A stretch of DNA of 64,000 nucleotides, taken from Liolophura sinensis. Taxonomy: Eukaryota; Mollusca; Polyplacophora; Chitonida; Chitonidae. A program made the translations under genes and the position numbers. Under the pieces are notes generated by a model. It had not been told where the DNA came from. It did no database searches and saw nothing but the letters and a program-made list of their open reading frames with translations. The stretch lies in the NCBI RefSeq assembly GCF_032854445.1, contig NC_088301.1:31649830-31713829 (forward strand), read 5' to 3'. Positions 2,706 through 62,290 of this stretch are shown here, piece after piece (position 1 is the first letter of the stretch; every line of letters starts with the position of its first letter).

Positions 2706-2759
2706 ATAATAGTTTTCACAACGAGGACTCGAAATGTGAGAGCAGCCAGGCCTTATTTG
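2706..2759 (+). CDS. Internal exon of a cysteine-rich secreted-type peptide gene
   Basis: This 54-base exon lies between a strong acceptor (T-rich tract ending TTCCTTGCAG at 2705) and a consensus donor GTAAGT at 2760. Both ends are phase 1. In the frame that joins to the exon at 4195 it encodes NSFHNEDSKCESSQALF, a polar stretch with one cysteine, followed by a glycine codon split over the junction. The exon has no start codon, so an upstream exon, expected to carry a signal peptide, must exist. I could not find it in 1-2705, so it may lie left of the window. Phase-0 reading is also open across the junction but gives no cysteine pattern. Function is unknown. The layout suggests the linker between a leader and a mature disulfide-rich domain. 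Confidence 0.7.
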
Positions 2760-4194
2760 GTAAGTTGTCCAAGGTGACCGTGTGTGTAAAAACCGACAAA
2801 CGGAAGCATAACTTGCTAATTAGAAATAAAAATATGATAAAACGAGAGAAAGACTGGCTTCCAGTGTAAATGTAGCTCTGAAAAACACCTCCTCGCGGAG
2901 ACAGTCAGTCTCCACACAACAATAGACTAGAAATAGTGTGTAGTTTAGTGCCTCGCAGTTTGCAGTTTTTGACTGTGTGTAAAATAAAAGCCGGTTACTT
3001 AACAGTATACCTAACCCCGCATGTAGGAGACTGGAAGACAACGTACCGATTGCGATTCCGTTTCCTTTTGGCTACACTGTTGAATGTCCCGACGGTACGA
3101 GTGTTATGTCACTAGGTCTATTTGATCACTTTCTACAGAGATGCCGCTCCACTTTATGTTACACTGGGTTCACGCCGTGATTCCCAAGGTGCTGGCACTT
3201 ACATTCTGCTGCTATCTAACATCGCAAAGGGACCCTGATTAAACTTAGCACATTACCATTTCAGCAAATATGCCAAACTGTAATTGGTAACCCATTAAGA
3301 TTTATTTTACCAAAGTGGTGTTGCATGATTGTATTTTGAATCGTGTACATTGTTTCTCAAAAATGTTTTCGGCATCTCTCTTTTTTTTTATTTATAAATG
3401 TTTTTAAGGTTTGAAATTTACATTTTACACTAATATTGCGCGAGGTATATAAATCAATATTATTTTATCTGATTTAAAAATCCTGATTTTGTGTCTAAGA
3501 CTGCTTCCTAATGCTGAGCTCATTCCTTTTACAACACAGGGTATGCTTATTTTTTCTCTCCAAGGCGGAGTGATATCTTCTTAAAATCAAGGTCATATAT
3601 TGATAAATGGATGTGTCAGTTTAGCGCCATATGCCGACATATGGTTATATGTATACGTCATTGGCATTGGCATTGGTACTGGCATATGCGTGAACTTCTT
3701 CATATCAGGTTTTCACATATAGTCAAGCAATAACCATCAGTCAAATATGATGATGCCGGTAACACTTCCCTAATTCAGAGTGAGGATAGTTGGTGGAGGG
3801 TTGGGTAGCGGGGTGTTTTTGATACATTACTGAATCTATACGCCAAAACTGAAGAGTTTGATTTTGGAAACGAAAAAGGAAATTTTAATTATCGGCTTGG
3901 TTTGTCTTTTACTCTATTGGAAACACAGACGTTAGTGACATTAATAAGCTTAGATATTCTTCAGAAGAAACTCGGAAATTTTCGGGATAGCTTATTACCT
4001 CTTGAGACGAAATTTCAGGCGGCGACCGTCATCTCCACTAAATTACTTTCTAGTTCTCCAAACAGTGTTAGTAATAACTTACTAATAACTATTAATAACA
4101 GTATCAAGGACGTTCAAGTTTTTTTCAGATTGCAAACAGTATATTATAAAAACACATCAGTAAAACTGTGCTGTTCTTGATTCCACATTTGCAG
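2760..4194 (+). other. Phase-1 intron of the Cys-rich peptide gene
   Basis: The intron is 1,435 bases, starting GTAAGTTG and ending CCACATTTGCAG. It is AT-rich and holds no recognisable repeat family. The frame at 3902-4180 is spurious. Confidence 0.65.
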
Positions 4195-4343
4195 GTTGCT
4201 ATGTGGATGCCTGTGTACCCCAGTTTGTGGCCTGTGCTAGGCGATCTCTATCAAGTGTGGGTTTCGACAGCTGTAAGGTGAAACATCGGATCTGCGCCGT
4301 ACGTTGTATGACCGAGGCCTCTCTGGACGATATCGCCAGATAG
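4195..4343 (+). CDS. Terminal exon: mature domain of a cysteine-rich helical-hairpin-like peptide
   Basis: After the acceptor TTTGCAG the frame carried from the 54-base exon reads 48 codons to TAG at 4341. Cysteines fall at exon residues 1, 6, 13, 26, 33 and 37, giving CX4CX6CX12CX6CX3C. It opens CYVDACVPQFVAC and closes CKVKHRICAVRC, followed by a polar tail ending DDIAR. The near mirror symmetry (C..C......C then C......C...C) is the spacing expected of two short helices pinned by disulfides. Small secreted peptides with this type of layout are common in invertebrates, but I recognise no named family. With the cysteine in the previous exon there are seven, so an eighth may lie in the missing first exon. 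Possible roles such as defence peptide, venom-like or signalling peptide are speculation. Confidence 0.75.
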
Positions 4344-5165
4344 TTGGTTTTGCCGGCAAACGCCATGGACGTGGAAAACTTCTACTCCTGAGTGAACAAA
4401 GAAACTTTACTTTATCCAAGCGATATGAACCAATGTGTCCAACTGTTGATGGCTATATAAACCCTGTACTAAACAACCCTGTCTCAGCATTATAGTTTAT
4501 ATTGATTCTGTTGTTGTTGTCAATATTATCCGTGATTTTCTTCTCAAATGTGTGTAATATGCCTTAACCACCCAAATCCACCTACTTTGTTTTCCTTCAC
4601 CCGTCCTTATGTAGTTGAATATTAGTCTCGAAACCTCACATTCGCTGTTTTCCAATAGCATTTTAGGAACAGAGGCAGATTTTCGCCCACTGTCTTTCAG
4701 CTCCGTGGACACTGCTCCTTCCATGTTGTATCTAGCCATTGTTCTATATGTATCTGTTAGTAGACGCCCCCAACCCTCACCCTCCCACACAACCCACGAG
4801 CCAGCTATCCCTTCAATGGCCCCCACCCAGACAATGAGAATTGCTCCGGATCCCTTCTAAGCATGGCTCACCCACAGGGAAATCCATAGCTAACGGTTGC
4901 TCATTTTTCAGATTTACGCTTAGTGCTAAGTTAACTCTATGTGTGGCATGCTGTTTCGATCGTCTTTTTTGTGTTTATTATATTCTATGTAAGACAGGGT
5001 AACTGGACTCAGCTATCCAGCTGCATTCAAACAATCCGTGTGACAATCTGCTGCTATACTTCAACTCCACCGAATCGTACATGTCCGATCTCTCCAGAAT
5101 TCTCTCCGGATGGATCGTCATAACTTATCTCACTAAGGTTCAATAAACGTTTTTCAAAGTACAGT
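4344..5165 (+). other. 3' UTR of the Cys-rich peptide gene
   Basis: About 820 bases follow the stop before the first canonical poly(A) signal. Frames open on either strand here (4497-4826 -, 4615-4860 +) have no recognisable features. Confidence 0.5.
5142..5147 (+). terminator. Poly(A) signal AATAAA
   Basis: This is the first AATAAA downstream of the stop at 4343. It is followed within 10-25 bases by a T-rich stretch suitable for cleavage. Confidence 0.5.
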
Positions 5166-5525: not shown

Positions 5526-7888
5526 AATTGAGTTATTCATTTATTTGAATTGGGTATTATACGCCCGTGGAATTCACCAACTTTGTTAAAGTCAGTCTTT
5601 AACAAAACATATATCCATTGTGAGCTATGGCCGAATTTTATGTCGAATTATGGCGATGTGAGTTAGTGAAATAGATCATGTGTGTATTCATAACGTTTTA
5701 CTTCTGACATGTATAAAACTCATCAGGTGACAAATAGACAAATTTGTCACGTGCCTGACATTTTATGACCTCACATATTCCGCCTGTGAAAGTCCCGTAG
5801 AGCCTGATGACTGATGACGATAACGTCATGATTGATGACGTCATAAAATTTTGATTTGTTTACAAGCCTCACCGTGCCATTCACATGCGAAACAACAAAG
5901 TCAGTCTTTTTTTTGTGTTTGTGGTTTTTATTAGTAAATGTATTTACGTCACATCACTGGGAGGTCTTTTCCAGAGCATTGGAGTTGCTATCAACAATGG
6001 TATGTGGGCTCATCGATTGTAATGACTTCTCTGAAGATTACAAGATCCTCATTATCTCGTTCACCTTAGCGTTGTCCTCACTGCAGCCCATCGACCAATC
6101 ATCAGTAAGGTTACAAAGAAGTCGACCTTACCTTTTCTATTTGTATTTCGAATGTTAAATGAACGCGAACGAGTAAGAGTATGTAACTTTATGGAATAAT
6201 GTTTAATTGGCATCCTTAGACGAGGGCGAGTATGTTACACCCTACAATGAAGTCGACTTTCTCTCAATATTATTTATGATGTATTAACTTATTTTTACAA
6301 GAAACTGGACTTTTTGTCGGTGTTATTTGTGCTGAATTAAACGGCGAGCGTGTTATTTTACCTTGATCACGTTCACCTTTTTGTTACGTCTTCTACCTTA
6401 CAGATTTAACAGTCCATATCGATTTTGCTCAAGATTATATAGATCTTATAAGAACATTTTTAAAACACCAAGTAAAGCTAGTCCCATAAACAATTTCCTC
6501 ATTACATTCTAGAGATCTCTATCAATTCTTCTTCTTGTCCCAAAATCGTGAAAGTTTCAGGCTGGCGAAAAAAAAAAAAACAGAATTCTAAAGCATTTAT
6601 GCATTGACCGCATTCCTTAATGGCTATGTAATTGTCCGGTGCCGCTGGTTTAAGATATCTGAAGTGGTTTCGGTACAACGTCGGTAAATTAAACAAGCGA
6701 TGCATAACTTATATAATAATCATACGTGAATCAATAAATTACTCAGACTGCGAAATGTTTAATGAAGTCACCCTTTCTTGCAGCATACGTGTTTATATAA
6801 CGTTTTCATATATTTCTAGGGAAAATAGGCTCCTGTTTTAGTGAAGTGCACACAGAAACCACTTAATAGCTATGCCTTTCATATCCGCCTACAAATACCT
6901 TCTCATCGTTTCCATACCCCCTTTTCTTCTCTTCATCCAGGAATGAAAAAACTAGCCAGAGACCTTATAAACGCCGGGATAAGATAAATAAACTGTAGAA
7001 ATTCTCTTTGTTTCCTAATTCTGTTGCCAAGCATTGCAGTTTCACATTAGTTTTATTTGACTTTTATGCCTGACCGCCAGAGACTTCTTCGCAGAACGGG
7101 CCAAAGTGAATTAAAAGTAGTCCATCTTTTCACTTCCACCATCTTTATCGCAGACTAAACTTCTGTAACAGACTTACCACCAGGCTTGACACATGAAGCA
7201 TTGTAGCCTAGGTACAGATATTGCAAGCTGCTGTCGCTGGATTCTCATGTACAACGAAACGCAACTTTCACAAAACCTTCATTCACAATGGTCTCTTGAT
7301 TTTTACCGCATAAAAATCTCTGATGTATAGAAACTTTTGGTAAGAGACTACAAGTTGAACTTGTAACTTCTGACTAAAGGGCTATATTCTAGCTTCTACC
7401 TCCAAGCTTGCCACAATTACATTGCAAGCTCAAATTCAGCTCCTGCCGGTTGGACTGCCTCTTTAAGTCGAGCGGTTTTTACCAGATTTTCGTCACTCAT
7501 ATACCTGACCAGTGTCGTACAATTAATTGAGATCACTTTTTTTCATCGCAAGAATACTTTTTGCTGTAAGTGATAAGTATTACTGATAGTTTGAATACAA
7601 CGATGTGCTGACCTCAAGTCGTTCACCTGAGTGTCGTGTTGTACTCAACCGGGTCTGATATTTGCGAGGTTTGTTAAGGACACTATTTAAAAATAAATCT
7701 CTTAAATTTAACAGAAAGTTTATTGTTTGAGTGATTCTGGGGTTTATTTACTTATTATGACAGCAGATTTATTTTGTCATTGAATCAGATTATTTTGTTA
7801 AATATAGCACGCATATTGTATTAATTCAACATACAGATTGCATTAGACATGACGCCATATTGCTTATGCAGTATGTTATAATAACAGA
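5526..7888. other. Intergenic stretch without a recognised gene
   Basis: It contains a cluster of CRE-like sites (see 5815-5843). At 6941 there is a terminal-exon-like segment: a strong acceptor, 18 open codons and an AATAAA at 6987. No other exon joins it. Nothing else is supportable. Confidence 0.4.
5815..5843. promoter_or_regulatory. CRE-like palindromes
   Basis: A perfect CRE (TGACGTCA) lies at 5836-5843. A gapped inverted pair of half sites, TGACG and CGTCA, spans 5815-5828. A further TTACGTCAC site lies near 5945. They match binding sites of CREB/ATF bZIP factors, but no downstream gene was recognised, so function is unproven. Confidence 0.3.
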
Positions 7889-42812: not shown

Positions 42813-44654
42813 ATGCCCCGTATAGCCAGGAGGCTTTTAGATTTGACAAATTTGCATTCTGGAGGACATTACCGTCATCGGCACTCCAGGATTTTTTCTA
42901 ACGATGACGTCATTGACCAGGAAGACAGCAGCTTCAGTGATGGACAGTTCCAGAAATTGCTTCAGCTACTTCACGAGCAAAATATTACCTTTGAGGAACT
43001 GGTCGCTCAGCGCAAGTTGACAACATCCACTGTGGGAACACCAACAACAACAATAACAACAACACGCGGTCCATCGATCCCAAACGACGGGGATTCCCAG
43101 GGACACGATGTCAGCTGGGGACTGATACTGCCAATTGTTTTTGTTGGCGTGTTTTTGATCTGTGTTGCGGCCTGTCTCTATTGGCACAATTGGAGGGACA
43201 AACGAAGATTACAAGGGGAGGCAGCTGTGCCTAATTTGTCCCTTTCCACCTTTTCCAGGACAAATCCAAACAGCGATGAGTGGAAAGCAGACTTACGATG
43301 TTCCACTCGATCCACGACTCCCTTGAGGATGGGGGGTCGGGACACTTCCAGTCTTCATCCAATGGCTTTTCATAACTCTCTGTCAGATTCTTTGTCTACT
43401 AGCAGGTCCAGTTACTCCACAAACGCTGGCACCAGTTTCTCCCGTGACGATCACGAACGTCATGTCCACAGTCGACGCCAGTTGTCCCCCATCGACGAGG
43501 TTGGGCCATACGTCTCCAAGCTTCTCGGCTCCAACGTCGCGTCTGTTTCTCAATACGAAGGTTGTATATCGGCTCAAGGAGTGTACCCTCCATACCATCT
43601 TACCTGGGTCAGTCCACAGGCGGTAACCCTCAACATCAGGCCTGAGGATATCAACAACAACAACAGAGCTATCGTTGAAACCAGTTTCTATAGAAGCGCC
43701 AAGAGCTCACCCTTCTTTCCAAACAACAACACGCCCACCACCGATTGTGATGGAGGCCAGAGTCGGAACTCGCCATCCAGCACAATAATTAATCGCCCGA
43801 GCAGCACTGCCCCGGGGTGTTATAGCAACATTGGCGCGGATAGATACCCCTCATCTGAACTGAGCACAGATAGCAGCTACACCGACGCCAGTGGTGGCAC
43901 CGCCATTGGTGCCGTGTCTTCTCTAGACTACCCAGGGTCAATCGGTAACCGGAAGTGTTCTTCAGACGCCGGTAGCAGAGATGGCAGCGACTCCAGCAGC
44001 CTACCGAGCAGCATCAATCCTTTTCGGATGAGGAATACTGCCCAACCCCCAGAGCACAGGCATACCGTGCCATCGCACACCGGCGCAATCGCGCAGATGA
44101 CTTTCTCCGAGCCTCTGGCAAGCAGCATTGATTCCTACACATCTTCGGACAACACGTCCCTGTACCCTAATGTTGGCAGCAGTGTGAACACAACGTCTCA
44201 CCCACTCAGCCTGCCATCGTACCCAATAACTCTGGCCCAAAGCGAAGCAACGACGCCCAGTCAGCACTCTCGCGGGGACGATGTCTTTGACACAGCTATC
44301 ACCATAGTAGACGGGGAGCCTAAGACTTGCTTACTAAATGGAGACTTCTCATCAACGGCTTCCATGGAATCCAGCAATATTGCCACTGCGCTCTTCCGAA
44401 GCTGGAGTGCAAATGCCGAGCTCAACTACACAGCACCATTTCCCAGTCATGCTGCCGCCTCTCCAATGTCCGCGCCACCTGGTGGTAATCCGTTCAGCCC
44501 GATGAATCCAAGGGAGGTAACTGATCGGCCGGAATCCCGAGTTGTTATAGGTGGTAATGGTCACAACAACTTAGACAAATCACAGTCAAACAGTAGACAC
44601 GTTGTTTTCCAGAACATTCCTCCGGTTTTAGACAGTAGGAAGCACTGGGTGTAA
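42813..44654 (+). CDS. Orphan single-pass membrane protein with long Ser-rich cytoplasmic tail (probably the last coding exon)
   Basis: The frame is open from a stop at 42654 to TAA at 44652. The first in-frame ATG is at 42813 (A at -3), giving 613 residues. Upstream exons are likely, because no signal peptide precedes the ectodomain. Counting from 42813: residues 45-69 form a polar/leucine segment (QKLLQLLHEQNITFEELVAQ) with one N-glycosylation site (N57); 70-84 are Thr-rich; about 103-124 are one transmembrane helix (GLILPIVFVGVFLICVAACL); then a basic stop-transfer (RDKRR). The remaining ~490 residues are Ser/Thr/Asn/Pro-rich and probably disordered, ending KHWV, a hydrophobic end that could dock to a PDZ domain although residue -2 is H rather than S/T. 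No known domain is recognised. Type I topology and a signalling or adhesion scaffold role are inferences. Acceptors at 42707, 42829 or 42887 could mark the true exon start. Confidence 0.75.
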   Translation: MPRIARRLLDLTNLHSGGHYRHRHSRIFSNDDVIDQEDSSFSDGQFQKLLQLLHEQNITFEELVAQRKLTTSTVGTPTTTITTTRGPSIPNDGDSQGHDVSWGLILPIVFVGVFLICVAACLYWHNWRDKRRLQGEAAVPNLSLSTFSRTNPNSDEWKADLRCSTRSTTPLRMGGRDTSSLHPMAFHNSLSDSLSTSRSSYSTNAGTSFSRDDHERHVHSRRQLSPIDEVGPYVSKLLGSNVASVSQYEGCISAQGVYPPYHLTWVSPQAVTLNIRPEDINNNNRAIVETSFYRSAKSSPFFPNNNTPTTDCDGGQSRNSPSSTIINRPSSTAPGCYSNIGADRYPSSELSTDSSYTDASGGTAIGAVSSLDYPGSIGNRKCSSDAGSRDGSDSSSLPSSINPFRMRNTAQPPEHRHTVPSHTGAIAQMTFSEPLASSIDSYTSSDNTSLYPNVGSSVNTTSHPLSLPSYPITLAQSEATTPSQHSRGDDVFDTAITIVDGEPKTCLLNGDFSSTASMESSNIATALFRSWSANAELNYTAPFPSHAAASPMSAPPGGNPFSPMNPREVTDRPESRVVIGGNGHNNLDKSQSNSRHVVFQNIPPVLDSRKHWV

Positions 44655-53970: not shown

Positions 53971-54410
53971 CAGAATCCTCGTTACAAACTGCCAGGTGAG
54001 AGAATCTGGACAGGTGTGCAGGGTGTTGAATCAGGGCTTACTGACGACGGCTTCTCTTAGCCATAGCCAACCAGCCAACCATAACTACAGTAGACAGCCA
54101 TCAGCCGGGACATTTCTGTGAAAATCGTGATCGTATGTGGGGAATATAAGTTTACAGGAGAGGCTGATCGAGTGAGGGTCGGTATACGTAATAGGCTAGA
54201 GGGTGAGATTAGTGAATCTGTGAGCGGTGACACGCTAAAGGTGTACAGAAAACGTCGACCCGGGGAGAGTTTGCACTTCCGGTATTCGGCTGCCATTTTT
54301 CGTTGGCGGATCAGCTCTGCGGTGACAGGTACAGTTCTGTGCCCAGGTCACTTTTATTTCCTCTACTCTGGAGACACGAAACCCCTAGAAAGTAGATCGC
54401 TCGCCTCAAC

Positions 54411-54740
54411 ATGCCGCTAGGAATATTCGGAAAGAAGAAATCAAACATTTCAAAGGACGTTCATGGGAGCTTAGTGGAGAGCCAACAGACAAATAACGAT
54501 GAGCCGCCCCGCCCAAGCACGGAGGCCCCGCCACCCAGTAAGACGGCAGAGGTGTCGGGCAATGGCTCGGCAGCCCGACCTGCCGTACCCCGACAGAACG
54601 ATCCCCAGCCCCCACGACCCAAACTCGTGTTCCATTGCCAACAGGCACACGGCAGTCCCACCGGTATCATTTCGGGCTTTACTAACGTCAAGGAGCTATA
54701 TCAGAAAATCGCCGATTGTTACGATCTAAAAGTCCAAGAT
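54411..54740 (+). CDS. gipc: GIPC-family PDZ adaptor, first coding exon (residues 1-110)
   Basis: The ATG has a good start context (CAACATGC). The exon begins MPLGIFGKKK, as GIPC proteins do, then has a Pro/Ser-rich linker (residues ~28-70), then the start of the GH1 domain: PKLVFHCQQAHGSPTG and ISGFTNVKELYQKIADCY. It ends after KVQD at a consensus donor (GATGTAAGTATT), phase 0. GIPC proteins (GH1-PDZ-GH2) are cytoplasmic adaptors that bind C-termini of membrane receptors through PDZ and link endocytic vesicles to myosin VI; that is family knowledge. The PDZ and GH2 parts are not in this window. The frame at 54118-54420 that overlaps the start is 5' UTR. Which of the vertebrate GIPC1-3 it corresponds to cannot be told, as invertebrates usually have one gene. 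Confidence 0.93.
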
Positions 54741-55389
54741 GTAAGTATTTAATCACAAAGTGTACTATGTAGCCTGTTATTGTGACAGGTTAAACCCAGA
54801 CATATACAGGTAAATCTGTGCTTATGTGTTTGTTTGAAATGAAGGGTGGGAACATCATCTGGTTGAGCTGGGTTTAATTTGGAGACGGTGTGGTGATGGA
54901 TGGGGAGTGGGGGATGGTAGGAAAGTATTATTCACAATTAACTAATCTATGGGGCTCATTCTACGAAGCAGTCAACAACCTGCACCTAGCATAATCTTCA
55001 CGACATCATACAATGATGTGATATGTCATTTTGACAGCTTTTAAGAACTGAACCCTGCATATTATATGCATGTAGTATTAATGTACTGTACAGTGTAAAA
55101 CTTCAATCAAATAAATAAACAAATTTTAATTGACCTTTAAATTATGTTCTTATGTGTACTGTAATTGGAGATGTTCCTTTTTCTTAATATGCAGCAGATA
55201 ATGAATCTAGTTTAATAATGTTCAGTCAGCAATCCAGTATAGCCCACCTGAGTATTGATTACCCAGGGGTAGTATGACTTAGATCAATATTGAGTAATAA
55301 GGCATCAAAGTTCTCACTCTAGTACAAAGTTGAGCTTTAAGCACAACACAAAGCTAAGGTATATCCCAAAGATTGAAGGGTAATATCCA

Positions 55390-58090: not shown

Positions 58091-59874
58091 CAGTACAATA
58101 TTAATAGAAATGTGCTAAGTTGAAAAATGGTACAGAGGCCCATTAGCCCATTTTGTAGAAGTAATTCACAGTCACCAGGAATTTTACCTCAAATATTAAA
58201 TAGTCCACAATTAGTCCATATTAAATAATTCGTTCTTTGTCTGGATACAGACTTCTAAAACACATAAGACACAGCATGTTAAATAAGTGCCGCCTAATGT
58301 AGTTTCATAGTTACTGTTGAAAGGAAGATGTTATACAGAACTTGAGAAGGCCTATAGCTACCTCGATTTTTTTTCAATAAAACTTTCAATTTATAGCGCC
58401 TGTGCTTTAGTAAAACGAAGAGAACCCAATCTGCTAGACAAGCTGGAAGGGCTAGAAAAAAAGTAAGAAAATAAATTTGTTTTTTGAGTTATGAGGTATA
58501 TGAACACTCAGTTTTTAACACAGACATGGCACAAATCCTGACAGCTCAACAAAAACAGTTACATGTATATAATATAATTTGTAAATTACGAATTATAGGT
58601 ATGGAATGATGTGTATCAACAATGTATGCTAACCATAGACATAATTGAGGTACTGCTACCTGTGAGAAATTTTTGCAGGCTGCTTTCAGTTTCACAAGTT
58701 ATGTAGGTGCATCTTGTATATCTCTTATTTTGCTGTTTTTACTTTTTGAGATGGTGGGAGCTAGGGGAGAGAGGGCAGTGAATGGCTCAGTAAAGTGTAA
58801 CTGTCCTGGACATGAATATATGTCATCAGACAGTTAACAGTCCTGTTTTAAAACCACATTGTAAATGCATTTCCTGGCCACAGTGGTGATGAAGGAAGTT
58901 ACTTCCGGTCATGTCTGTGCTAATTAGCTGATAAACGAACATTTGTGGCCTGATGATTCTCTAAAGTTCTGTGCAAACAATTTGTACGGGTGATTTTTGC
59001 GCAGAGAGATCCATGTAGTTCATATGTGGTCTTCTATATAGATAGGAATGTGTATGTTGTACGTGGGGTTATACATTTTAAATGTAGGCCTATATATATT
59101 TAAAGAATACAGATTAGAAGTTTCATATTGTCCCAGCAAATTGCCTGCTGACCTAAATTGATGTGCATACATATGTATATGGCCCCAGGGATAAGGTCAT
59201 CTCAGTCCTTTATTATCCTGCTTCACGGTGCAAAGCAAGGGAGTGCCCTGCTGTTTTTAGGACTGTGATATTGAAGCTTCTGCTCATCTGGGATTCAATT
59301 ATGACTGAAGATTTGCTGATCTCTGAATGTTAGCTCTGATTATACATGACAGCACCGGTAAACTAGGCTTGAGATTAACTGCAAAATGTCATGCAGGGAG
59401 ACTCACTGCATTGTCCCCCTTGATATTACATGCAACCAGCTCTTATATTAAATTAAAGTTGGAGAAAACAAAGATTACAGAAAATTTTTTGAAAAGTTAG
59501 TTAAAAATTTGGCCCTCGATAGTTTTCCCCCTTAATTTTTCTTTAAAAGAGAAAAACACACTTGAAAATAATTTTTGTATTGGGGACAAATTCTTTTGGT
59601 ATATATTGTCTTTGTGTAATGAGGATGTAACACATGTATAACAAAATATCCACCATACAAACTTATTTTCAAACACCATTTTTTTCCTGTAGAAAATATG
59701 AATAAAAATATGAAAGACGATATAACTTTCATCTGATTTTGGCATAAGTTTTATGTTTTCTTCTCCTTTAAGGAAAGCAGTTATTATCATATCATTGTAT
59801 AGCATCTAGTAGAAGACATTACCACACATGAGACAAATAAGCACAGATCGATGTGAGCAGGTAGTACTATGGGT

Positions 59875-60618
59875 GTGACATTTACAATATTGAGTGTTTG
59901 ACCATACAGTATTGTGAATCTGACCATGATTGCAGCATTGTGAATGTGACATTATGATATTGAGTGTATGACCATACAGTATTGTGAATCTGAGCATGAT
60001 TACAGCATTGTGAATGTGACATTATGATATTGAGTGTATGACCATACAGTATTGTGAATCTGAGCATGATTACAGCATTGTGAATGTGACATTATGATAT
60101 TGAGTGTATGACCCATACAGTATTGTGAGTCTGACCATGATTACAGCATTGTAAATGTGACTTTATGATATTGAGTGTATGACCAATACAGTATTGTGAA
60201 TCTGAGCATGATTACAGCATTGTGAATGTGACATTATGATATTGAGTGTATGACCATACAGTATTGTGAATCTGAGCATGATTACAGCATTGTGAATGTG
60301 ACTTTATGATATTGAGTGTATGACCATACAGTATTGTGAATCTGACCATGATTGCAGCATTGTGAATGTGACATTATGATATTGAGTGTATGACCCATAC
60401 AGTATTGTGAATCTGACCATGATTACAGCATTGTGAATGTGACATTATGATATTGAGTGTATGACCAATACAGTATTGTGAATCTGACCATGATTACAGC
60501 ATTGTGAATGTGACATTATGATATTGGGTGTATGACCCATACAGTATTGTGAATCTGACCATGATTACAGCATTGTGAATGTGACATTATGATATTGGGT
60601 GTATGACCATACAGTATT
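59875..60618. repeat. Higher-order tandem repeat, 70-bp unit, about 10.5 copies
   Basis: The unit CAGTATTGTGAATCTGACCA, TGATTACAGCATTGTGAATG, TGACATTATGATATTGAGTG, TATGACCATA is nearly homogeneous. Each unit contains three ~23-base subrepeats of the form ATTGTGAATSTGACCAT, showing it arose from a shorter motif. Confidence 0.93.
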
Positions 60619-62290
60619 TAGGATGCAACATGACAATGTTGTGGATGTGACATTACAATGTTATGGATGTGGCATTCCAGTGTTGTGGATGCAACATTCC
60701 TATGTTGTGGATTTGACATTACAGTGTTATGGATGCAACATTCCTATGTTGTGGATGTGACATTCCAATGTTGTGGATGTGACATTACATTGTTATGGAT
60801 GCAACATTCCAAAGTTGTGGATGTGACGTTCCAGTGTTGTGGATGCGGCATTACATTGTTGTGGATGCGATATTACAATGCTGTGGATGCGACATTACAA
60901 TGTTATGGATGTTTCATTCCAATGCTGTGGATGCAACAGTCCAATGTTGCATATGCCGCATTCCAGTGTTGTGGATGTGACATTCCAATGCTGTGGATAT
61001 GGCATTCCAATATTGTGGATGCAGCATTACAATGTTGTGGATGCAGTATTACAATGTTGTGGATGTGACATTCCGATGTTGTGGATGAGGCATTACAGTG
61101 TTGTGGATGCGACATTCCGATGTTGTGAATGTGATATTACAATATTGTGGATGCGACATTCCAGTGCTGTGGATATGGCATTCCAATGTTGTGGATGCAG
61201 CATTACAATGTTGTGGATGCGACATTACAATGTTGTGGATGCAGCATTCCAGTGTTGTGGATGCCGCATTCCAATGTTGTGGATGCGACATTCCAATGCT
61301 GTGGATATGGCATTCCAATGTTGTGGATGCAGTATTACAATGTTGTGGATGCGATATTACAATGTTGTGGATGTGACATTCCGATGTTGTGGATGAGGCA
61401 TTACAGTGTTGTGGGTACGACAGCACAATATTGTGGATGTGACATTCCAGTACTATGGAGGCAGCATTCCAATGATGCGGATGTGACATTACAACATTGT
61501 GGATGCGACGCTCCAGTGTTGTGGATATGATGTTCCAGGGTTGTGGATGCGGTGCTCCAGTGTTGTGGGTGCGACATCACAATATTGTGGATGTGACATT
61601 GTGTTGTTTTTTTTTTTGCAGTATAACAATGTTGTGGATGTGCCATTACAATGTCGCAGATGTGACATCTATGTTGTGGATATGACATGATAATGTTGTA
61701 AATGTCACATTACAGTGTTGTGGGTACATCATGGTGATGTTGTGGATGTGACATTACAATGCTGTGGATATGACATGGTGATGTTGTGGATGTGACATTA
61801 CAGTGTTGTGGATGTGACATGATAATGTTGTACATGTGACATTATTGTGTGGTGGATGTGACATCACAATGTTGTGGATGTGACATTTCAGTGTTGGGTA
61901 TATTGTGTTAATACCATACGGTATTGTAGCCTGACCATGACTATGCAGTGTTGTGAATGTGACATTACAACATTGAGCGTGTGACCATACAATATTGTGT
62001 GTGTTGCCATGTGATGTGTGGATGTGACATTACCATGTTGTGGGTACAACATTACAGTGTTGTGGATGTGACATTACAGTGTTAGGTGTGTGACCATACG
62101 GTATTGTGGATAGATTATACAGTCTTGTCTTCTGACCATGCATACAGTACTGTGAATGCAACATTACAATACTAGATGTGTGACCATGCATTATTGTGTC
62201 ACCATACAATAATGCAGCATTACAATATTGGGTTTGTGCACGACCAGTATTGTGGGTACATGTGGCCGTACAATATTGTCAGTGTGGAGA
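60618..62290. repeat. Minisatellite, 21-bp unit, about 60 copies, grading into mixed units
   Basis: The unit TTGTGGATGCGACATTACAA TG is regular from about 60640 to 61600. After a T tract at 61600-61617 it becomes irregular, and from 61900 is mixed with pieces of the 70-bp type (GTGTGACCATACAATATTGT). Because 21 is seven codons and the unit lacks stops, several long frames stay open on both strands (for example 60839-61396 + and 61049-61489 -) with Cys-Cys-Gly-Cys periodicity. Confidence 0.93.

What the first reader, a model, noticed from the sequence alone, without database searches (positions are those of the whole stretch)
2706..4343. Split gene for an unrecognised cysteine-rich peptide with CX4CX6CX12CX6CX3C
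Two short exons with strong splice sites join in one frame across a phase-1 intron and give seven cysteines. The last exon shows a mirror-like spacing expected for a disulfide-pinned helical hairpin. No single open frame in the window covers it, so ORF-based annotation would miss it. The splice signals, the shared phase, the in-frame stop and the downstream AATAAA agree with each other. The peptide class and any defence, toxin-like or signalling role are inference.
Basis: partly seen in the sequence, partly recalled or inferred. Interest (0 to 1): 0.75.

Follow-up and report, generated by a model that had tools for sequence, protein, structure and literature searches.

The report
Chiton secreted seven-cysteine peptide gene
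A real five-exon gene of a chiton makes a small, probably secreted, cysteine-rich peptide that probably folds as a pinned helical hairpin; a database already lists it, as an uncharacterized protein.

Summary
Exons 2706-2759 and 4195-4343 join in phase 1 and encode exactly CX4CX6CX12CX6CX3C plus one earlier cysteine. They are the last two of five coding exons. I predicted the missing signal exon and one further exon, 17.5 and 2.5 kb upstream of the window, from sequence alone. A search with that conceptual peptide returned one protein: 'uncharacterized protein LOC135471629 [Liolophura sinensis]', 129 aa, on a contig of the same length as ours. The five exons, all four introns phase 1, concatenate to it exactly. 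The window is therefore from this chiton, whose assembly is ~609 Mb (PMC11068029). The precursor reads as signal peptide, acidic propeptide ending in KR, and an 84-residue seven-cysteine product. AlphaFold2 on the last exon alone gives a helical hairpin (pLDDT 88.5; one chance frame gave 67.9), and its cysteine positions fit an antiparallel register. No Pfam, NCBIfam or PDB-sequence relative and no paralogue were found at the sensitivity. My best reading is an orphan secreted signalling peptide. The gene model is near certain; the fold is a single-sequence prediction; the function is inference.

The parts
2706..2759 (+). Fourth coding exon (54 nt, phase 1 in and out); encodes the end of the linker and the first of the seven cysteines (DNSFHNEDSKCESSQALF)
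   Evidence: Strong acceptor and donor, open frame; contained exactly in P0016
2760..4194 (+). Intron 4, 1435 nt, phase 1, GT-AG
   Evidence: junction agrees with NCBI protein LOC135471629
4195..4343 (+). Last coding exon with stop codon; encodes the six-cysteine helical hairpin CX4CX6CX12CX6CX3C
   Evidence: 48 of 48 residues identical to the end of P0016; AlphaFold2 hairpin, pLDDT 88.5
4344..5147 (+). Probable 3' untranslated region up to the first AATAAA (5142-5147)
   Evidence: Motif found; extent is inference, no transcript data

Best explanation
The two exons are the 3' end of a five-coding-exon gene of the chiton Liolophura sinensis (LOC135471629). Shown: the exon chain, the four phase-1 introns and the identity with the annotated 129-aa protein. 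Inferred: the product enters the secretory pathway by its hydrophobic N-terminus, is cut after the dibasic KR at residues 44-45, and is released as an 84-residue, 9.3-kDa, near-neutral peptide. Its last 48 residues fold as two antiparallel helices pinned by three disulfides in the order I-VI, II-V, III-IV of the six hairpin cysteines. The remaining cysteine, in exon A, is left over and may join two chains or stay free. I think it most likely acts outside the cell as a stable signalling peptide (hormone- or pheromone-like) rather than as a venom or antimicrobial peptide.
For: Gene model: predicted exons and P0016 agree, and the test of exact concatenation returned True. The contig length 60359117 equals that of G000:C7. 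The genome is 609,464,459 bases against ~609 Mb in the abstract of PMC11068029; the species was renamed L. sinensis (PMC12441733, read whole). Mollusc: eight haemocyanin beta-sandwich units in a row. Secretion: hydropathy peak 2.55 at residues 10-20 and an ATG in an ACCATGG context. Hairpin: helices at residues 3-16 and 20-47 of the last exon with mean pLDDT 88.5. The cysteine positions 1, 6, 13 / 26, 33, 37 sum to 38, 39 and 39, a near-constant antiparallel register; 767 of 52360 placements of the four inner cysteines meet the looser version of that test. Signalling rather than toxin or antimicrobial: a KR site, pI 6.1, and no second copy found in the genome (a search of limited reach).
Against: Function rests on architecture only. 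No relative in any other species was found, so conservation of the cysteines is untested. The fold is a single-sequence prediction with one control, and no disulfide distances were read. P0016 is a database protein from this same assembly; I did not see whether transcripts support it. Codon usage does not separate the exons from background. Under loose filters the signal exon was no better than the chance rate (0.88 per 20 kb). Some toxins also have propeptides and phase-1 introns.
Confidence: 0.5

Rival explanations
1. Same gene, but the peptide is a toxin-like or deterrent effector, comparable in build with the helical macro-conotoxins (con-ikot-ikot, Mu8.1).
For: Small helical cysteine-rich peptide with a signal; [quoted passage not shown] an odd cysteine would allow a covalent dimer as in con-ikot-ikot (passage of PMC4278219).
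Against: No second copy found, whereas toxin families usually expand (recalled). Seven cysteines with no CC pair, against ten conserved in the Mu8.1 class, 13 in con-ikot-ikot, and CC-C-C-C-CC-C-C-C in its relative p21a. Chitons are not known to be venomous (recalled). Phase-1 introns are common in secreted proteins (recalled).
Confidence: 0.15
2. Same gene, but the peptide is a haemolymph defence (antimicrobial) peptide.
For: Small disulfide-rich peptide of a marine invertebrate with a signal; the hairpin alone is slightly basic, pI 8.3.
Against: The 84-residue product is near neutral, pI 6.1; no Pfam family at all matches.
Confidence: 0.15
3. Same gene, but the product is an ordinary extracellular protein without a signalling or defence role (for example egg-coat, mucus or matrix).
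For: No homologue or tissue information to exclude it; orphan secreted helical proteins of unknown role exist in molluscs, for example CRASP of Achatina (passages of PMC4596865).
Against: The KR-ended propeptide and a compact pinned fold are more typical of processed peptides (general knowledge).
Confidence: 0.18
4. A chance arrangement of splice-like signals and cysteine codons.
For: Cysteine-rich terminal frames alone are common by chance; codon usage is neutral.
Against: The annotated 129-aa protein equals the five-exon chain letter for letter, and two of the three upstream exons were predicted before that protein was seen.
Confidence: 0.02

Closest known systems
LOC135471629, uncharacterized protein of Liolophura sinensis (sources ncbi and uniref)
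   Same: The same gene: all 129 residues equal the five-exon translation
   Different: Nothing; the name shown gives no family or function
Attractin, water-borne pheromone of Aplysia
   Same: Small mollusc secreted peptide, one copy in its precursor; attractin has 58 residues and three disulfides (passages of PMC3484142). Helical hairpin build and I-VI, II-V, III-IV pairing of attractin are recalled
   Different: No Pfam match at E 10; seven cysteines here; spacing differs from what I recall of attractin; a search of this genome for the attractin family did not complete
Macro-conotoxins (con-ikot-ikot, saposin-like conotoxin Mu8.1)
   Same: Helical, disulfide-rich, secreted, phase-1 introns (passages)
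   Different: Ten conserved cysteines (Mu8.1 class) or 13 (con-ikot-ikot) and a saposin-like fold there; seven cysteines and a predicted two-helix hairpin here
CRASP, cysteine-rich atrial secretory protein of Achatina
   Same: Orphan, secreted, helical, disulfide-rich mollusc protein (abstract and passages of PMC4596865)
   Different: 158 residues, ten cysteines, eight helical segments

Membership tests
Secreted prohormone-like cysteine-rich peptide precursor (general kind) | N-terminal hydrophobic signal after a start codon | tested here: met
   Hydropathy 2.55 over residues 10-20, MVRCTGLLTLAPALIFTVLLHT; no dedicated signal-peptide program was available
Secreted prohormone-like cysteine-rich peptide precursor (general kind) | Dibasic site before the cysteine-rich part | tested here: met
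   KR at residues 44-45 of P0016, with an acidic propeptide before it; cleavage itself not tested
Disulfide-pinned helical hairpin | Two antiparallel helices with cysteines facing in register | tested here: inconclusive
   AlphaFold2 single-sequence model mean pLDDT 88.5, helices 3-16 and 20-47; one control frame 67.9 with strands; bond distances not available
Attractin family | Sequence match to the family profile | tested here: inconclusive
   No Pfam family at E 10 for P0016; that Pfam holds an attractin model is recalled, and short divergent peptides can be missed
Macro-conotoxin superfamily | Ten conserved cysteines with identical loop sizes (Mu8.1 class) or 13 cysteines (con-ikot-ikot) | tested here: not met
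   Seven cysteines in the 84-residue product, no CC pair against the counts
Macro-conotoxin superfamily | All introns in phase 1 | tested here: met
   Four phase-1 introns; shared with many unrelated secreted proteins (recalled), so weak
Repulsive guidance molecule N-terminal domain | Fold and sequence of the helical domain | tested here: inconclusive

The most novel reading that the evidence does not exclude
The gene is the first seen member of a chiton-restricted (or fast-evolving mollusc) family of peptide hormones or pheromones with a seven-cysteine frame (CX8CX4CX6CX12CX6CX3C), made of a disulfide-pinned helical hairpin whose spare cysteine joins two chains.
Probability: 0.25. Interest if true: 0.5.

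Novelty: new member of a known kind. Interest (0 to 1): 0.32.

Why it matters
A reader of raw sequence picked out the last two exons of a 22-kb peptide gene that no single frame shows, and the junction proved exact. The peptide has no recognised family in the searches made, so it is a concrete candidate for peptide signalling in chitons. The introduction of a 2019 paper on mollusc neuropeptides says that thorough surveys were lacking for five classes, Polyplacophora among them, before that paper's own survey (passage of PMC6425005). It is otherwise one of many annotated but uncharacterized secreted proteins.

Tried and rejected
The 66-aa two-exon query found nothing in 5.8 billion proteins. 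This is explained by length: candidates may have at most 1.75 times the query's length (115 residues), and the true protein has 129. The 105-aa four-exon query found it (2 candidates, 1 hit).

Paralogues: one place for the last exon at E 10, itself. For P0016 six places at E 10, five of them its own exons and one (L017, E 9.8) without the cysteine frame. The tool scores only its best candidates, so distant paralogues are not excluded. The match around the second exon runs on upstream of that exon with two stops, and I give it no meaning.

First-exon candidates: under loose filters the true signal exon was at the chance rate (0.88 per 20 kb). In 600 simulated 100-kb stretches a signal exon by the filters occurs 0.34 times per 20 kb, with an upstream acceptor 0.035, and with a good start context 0.0043. 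In the 59 kb upstream three passed the first filter and one, the true one, all three; the three control stretches had none past the second. My first scan used too strict a donor filter and missed it. I first built the chain without the second exon, and P0016 corrected this. That exon was not in my list, probably because its donor (ATT|gtaagt) is below the cut used there; I did not recompute it.

Codon usage did not help. No Rfam family at gathering score in the window. Literature: 10 searches, several with capped lists; no listed title is about this gene. The locus name itself was not searched. (pieces of the spacing) had 83 papers, of which I saw 25 rows, mostly plant LBD proteins; a bullet-ant venom paper and an aphid peptide paper in that list hold such pieces and were not opened. 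Seven papers were fetched: passages of four, passages and one section of PMC6425005, the outline and abstract of PMC11068029, and the whole of PMC12441733.

Full report
What was claimed. Two short exons at 2706-2759 and 4195-4343 were said to join across a phase-1 intron into an unrecognised peptide with CX4CX6CX12CX6CX3C, with its 5' part missing.

Check of the sequence. The exons, the GT-AG borders, the phase and the stop are as described. Of three frames of the joined exons only one is open to the final stop; it gives 66 residues and 7 cysteines. The exact spacing, and a loosened one, occur once in the six-frame translation of the window and not in the 59 kb upstream. AATAAA is at 5142 and 5207.

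Chance. Cysteine-rich terminal frames are cheap: 2347 in 1200 simulated windows, and 4 real ones in this window including ours. The mirror arrangement is rarer (70 in 1200), with same-face spacing 6, and with helix propensity too 3. Exon A is the only internal exon on either strand with splice sites at least that strong and an open frame to phase 1; 0.20 are expected per strand-window and 0.005 in 1.5 kb (400 simulations). Codon usage gives no support. Thresholds were set at the observed values, so I treat these figures as support, not proof.

The missing 5' part. The window is bases 31649830-31713829 of contig C7 of a 609,464,459-base genome, so I read upstream. A signal-like exon was found at window coordinates -17617 to -17543 (base 0 is the one before the window). 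It has an acceptor, ACCATGG, MVRCTGLLTLAPALIFTVLLHT and a phase-1 donor CAG|gtaacg. A further phase 1-1 exon lies at -2553 to -2506. Under loose filters such signal exons are common (0.88 per 20 kb of control sequence). In 600 simulated stretches of 100 kb, one with an acceptor and a good start context occurs 0.0043 times per 20 kb.

Blind confirmation. Searching the 105-residue peptide of those exons returned one protein, P0016: 'uncharacterized protein LOC135471629 [Liolophura sinensis]', 129 aa, 81% identity over 100% of the query, E 1.3e-60, on a contig of 60,359,117 bases. C7 has the same length. P0016 holds one exon that I had missed; it lies at -9317 to -9246 with an acceptor ttttcag and donor gtaagt. 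The five coding exons (-17609..-17543, -9317..-9246, -2553..-2506, 2706..2759, 4195..4343) concatenate to P0016 exactly, with introns of 8225, 6692, 5211 and 1435 nt, all phase 1. The published assembly is about 609 Mb (abstract of PMC11068029), first called L. japonica and corrected to L. sinensis (PMC12441733). L. sinensis is a chiton, Polyplacophora. Eight molluscan haemocyanin units in a row on C8 agree. I did not see whether the NCBI protein has transcript support.

What the protein is. The chain reads as a hydrophobic signal, an acidic stretch ending VLAKR, then an 84-residue product (9303 Da, 7 cysteines, pI 6.1). AlphaFold2 on the 48-residue last exon alone gives helices 3-16 and 20-47 with mean pLDDT 88.5, five models 79.2 to 88.5. 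A chance six-cysteine frame of the same window gives 67.9, five models 48.2 to 67.9, with strands; this is one control only. Cysteines 1, 6, 13 and 26, 33, 37 pair with sums 38, 39, 39, as antiparallel helices joined by I-VI, II-V, III-IV bonds would need; this is inference. The exon-A cysteine is spare, so a dimer is possible.

Relatives. None outside the species was found. One search had two candidates and one hit, the gene's own product. Pfam, NCBIfam and PDB sequence searches are empty apart from one chance row. In the own genome only its own exons match better than E 9.8 (the last exon alone). The protein collection does hold mollusc proteins: another exon of the window found a protein 89% identical and four named bivalve proteins among 15 hits (only the 7990 best candidates were scored). 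The search needs shared five-residue words, so a fast-evolving peptide can have unseen relatives.

Function. I favour a secreted signalling peptide: processed from a KR-cut precursor, near neutral, with no second copy found. Attractin is the mollusc peptide it most resembles in build as I recall it, but membership is not shown. Macro-conotoxins share phase-1 introns and helices but differ in cysteine number, so membership is not met. Toxin-like, antimicrobial and structural roles stay open.

Verdict. The gene is annotated already but uncharacterized, so the finding is sound and modest: a new member of the known kind of small secreted cysteine-rich peptides.

Noticed in passing
window 42987-44651 (+): Last part of a probable transmembrane protein (LPIVFVGVFLICVAACLYWHNWRDKRR followed by a long serine-rich tail); 555 residues, no Pfam family at E 0.1, 15 homologues of which one is 89% identical and four are named bivalve uncharacterized or hypothetical proteins.
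   Followed up: partly
window 54399-54749 (+): An exon of a GIPC gene, probably its first coding one (Pfam GIPC1_GH1, E 1.4e-16).
   Followed up: no
window 60621-61896: Satellite-like array of a 22-base unit, 58 copies, giving long spurious open frames on both strands; a 71-base array lies beside it at 59874-60618.
   Followed up: no
G000:C8:37880506-37891931: Molluscan haemocyanin gene with eight beta-sandwich units in a row, each in an open frame of 429-529 residues.
   Followed up: no
L005, about 6163-7527, minus strand (window coordinates -22837 to -21473): 455-residue open frame made of a tandem repeat (GDIKHNMLKYSILFIHRPTQ), probably a satellite rather than a gene.
   Followed up: no
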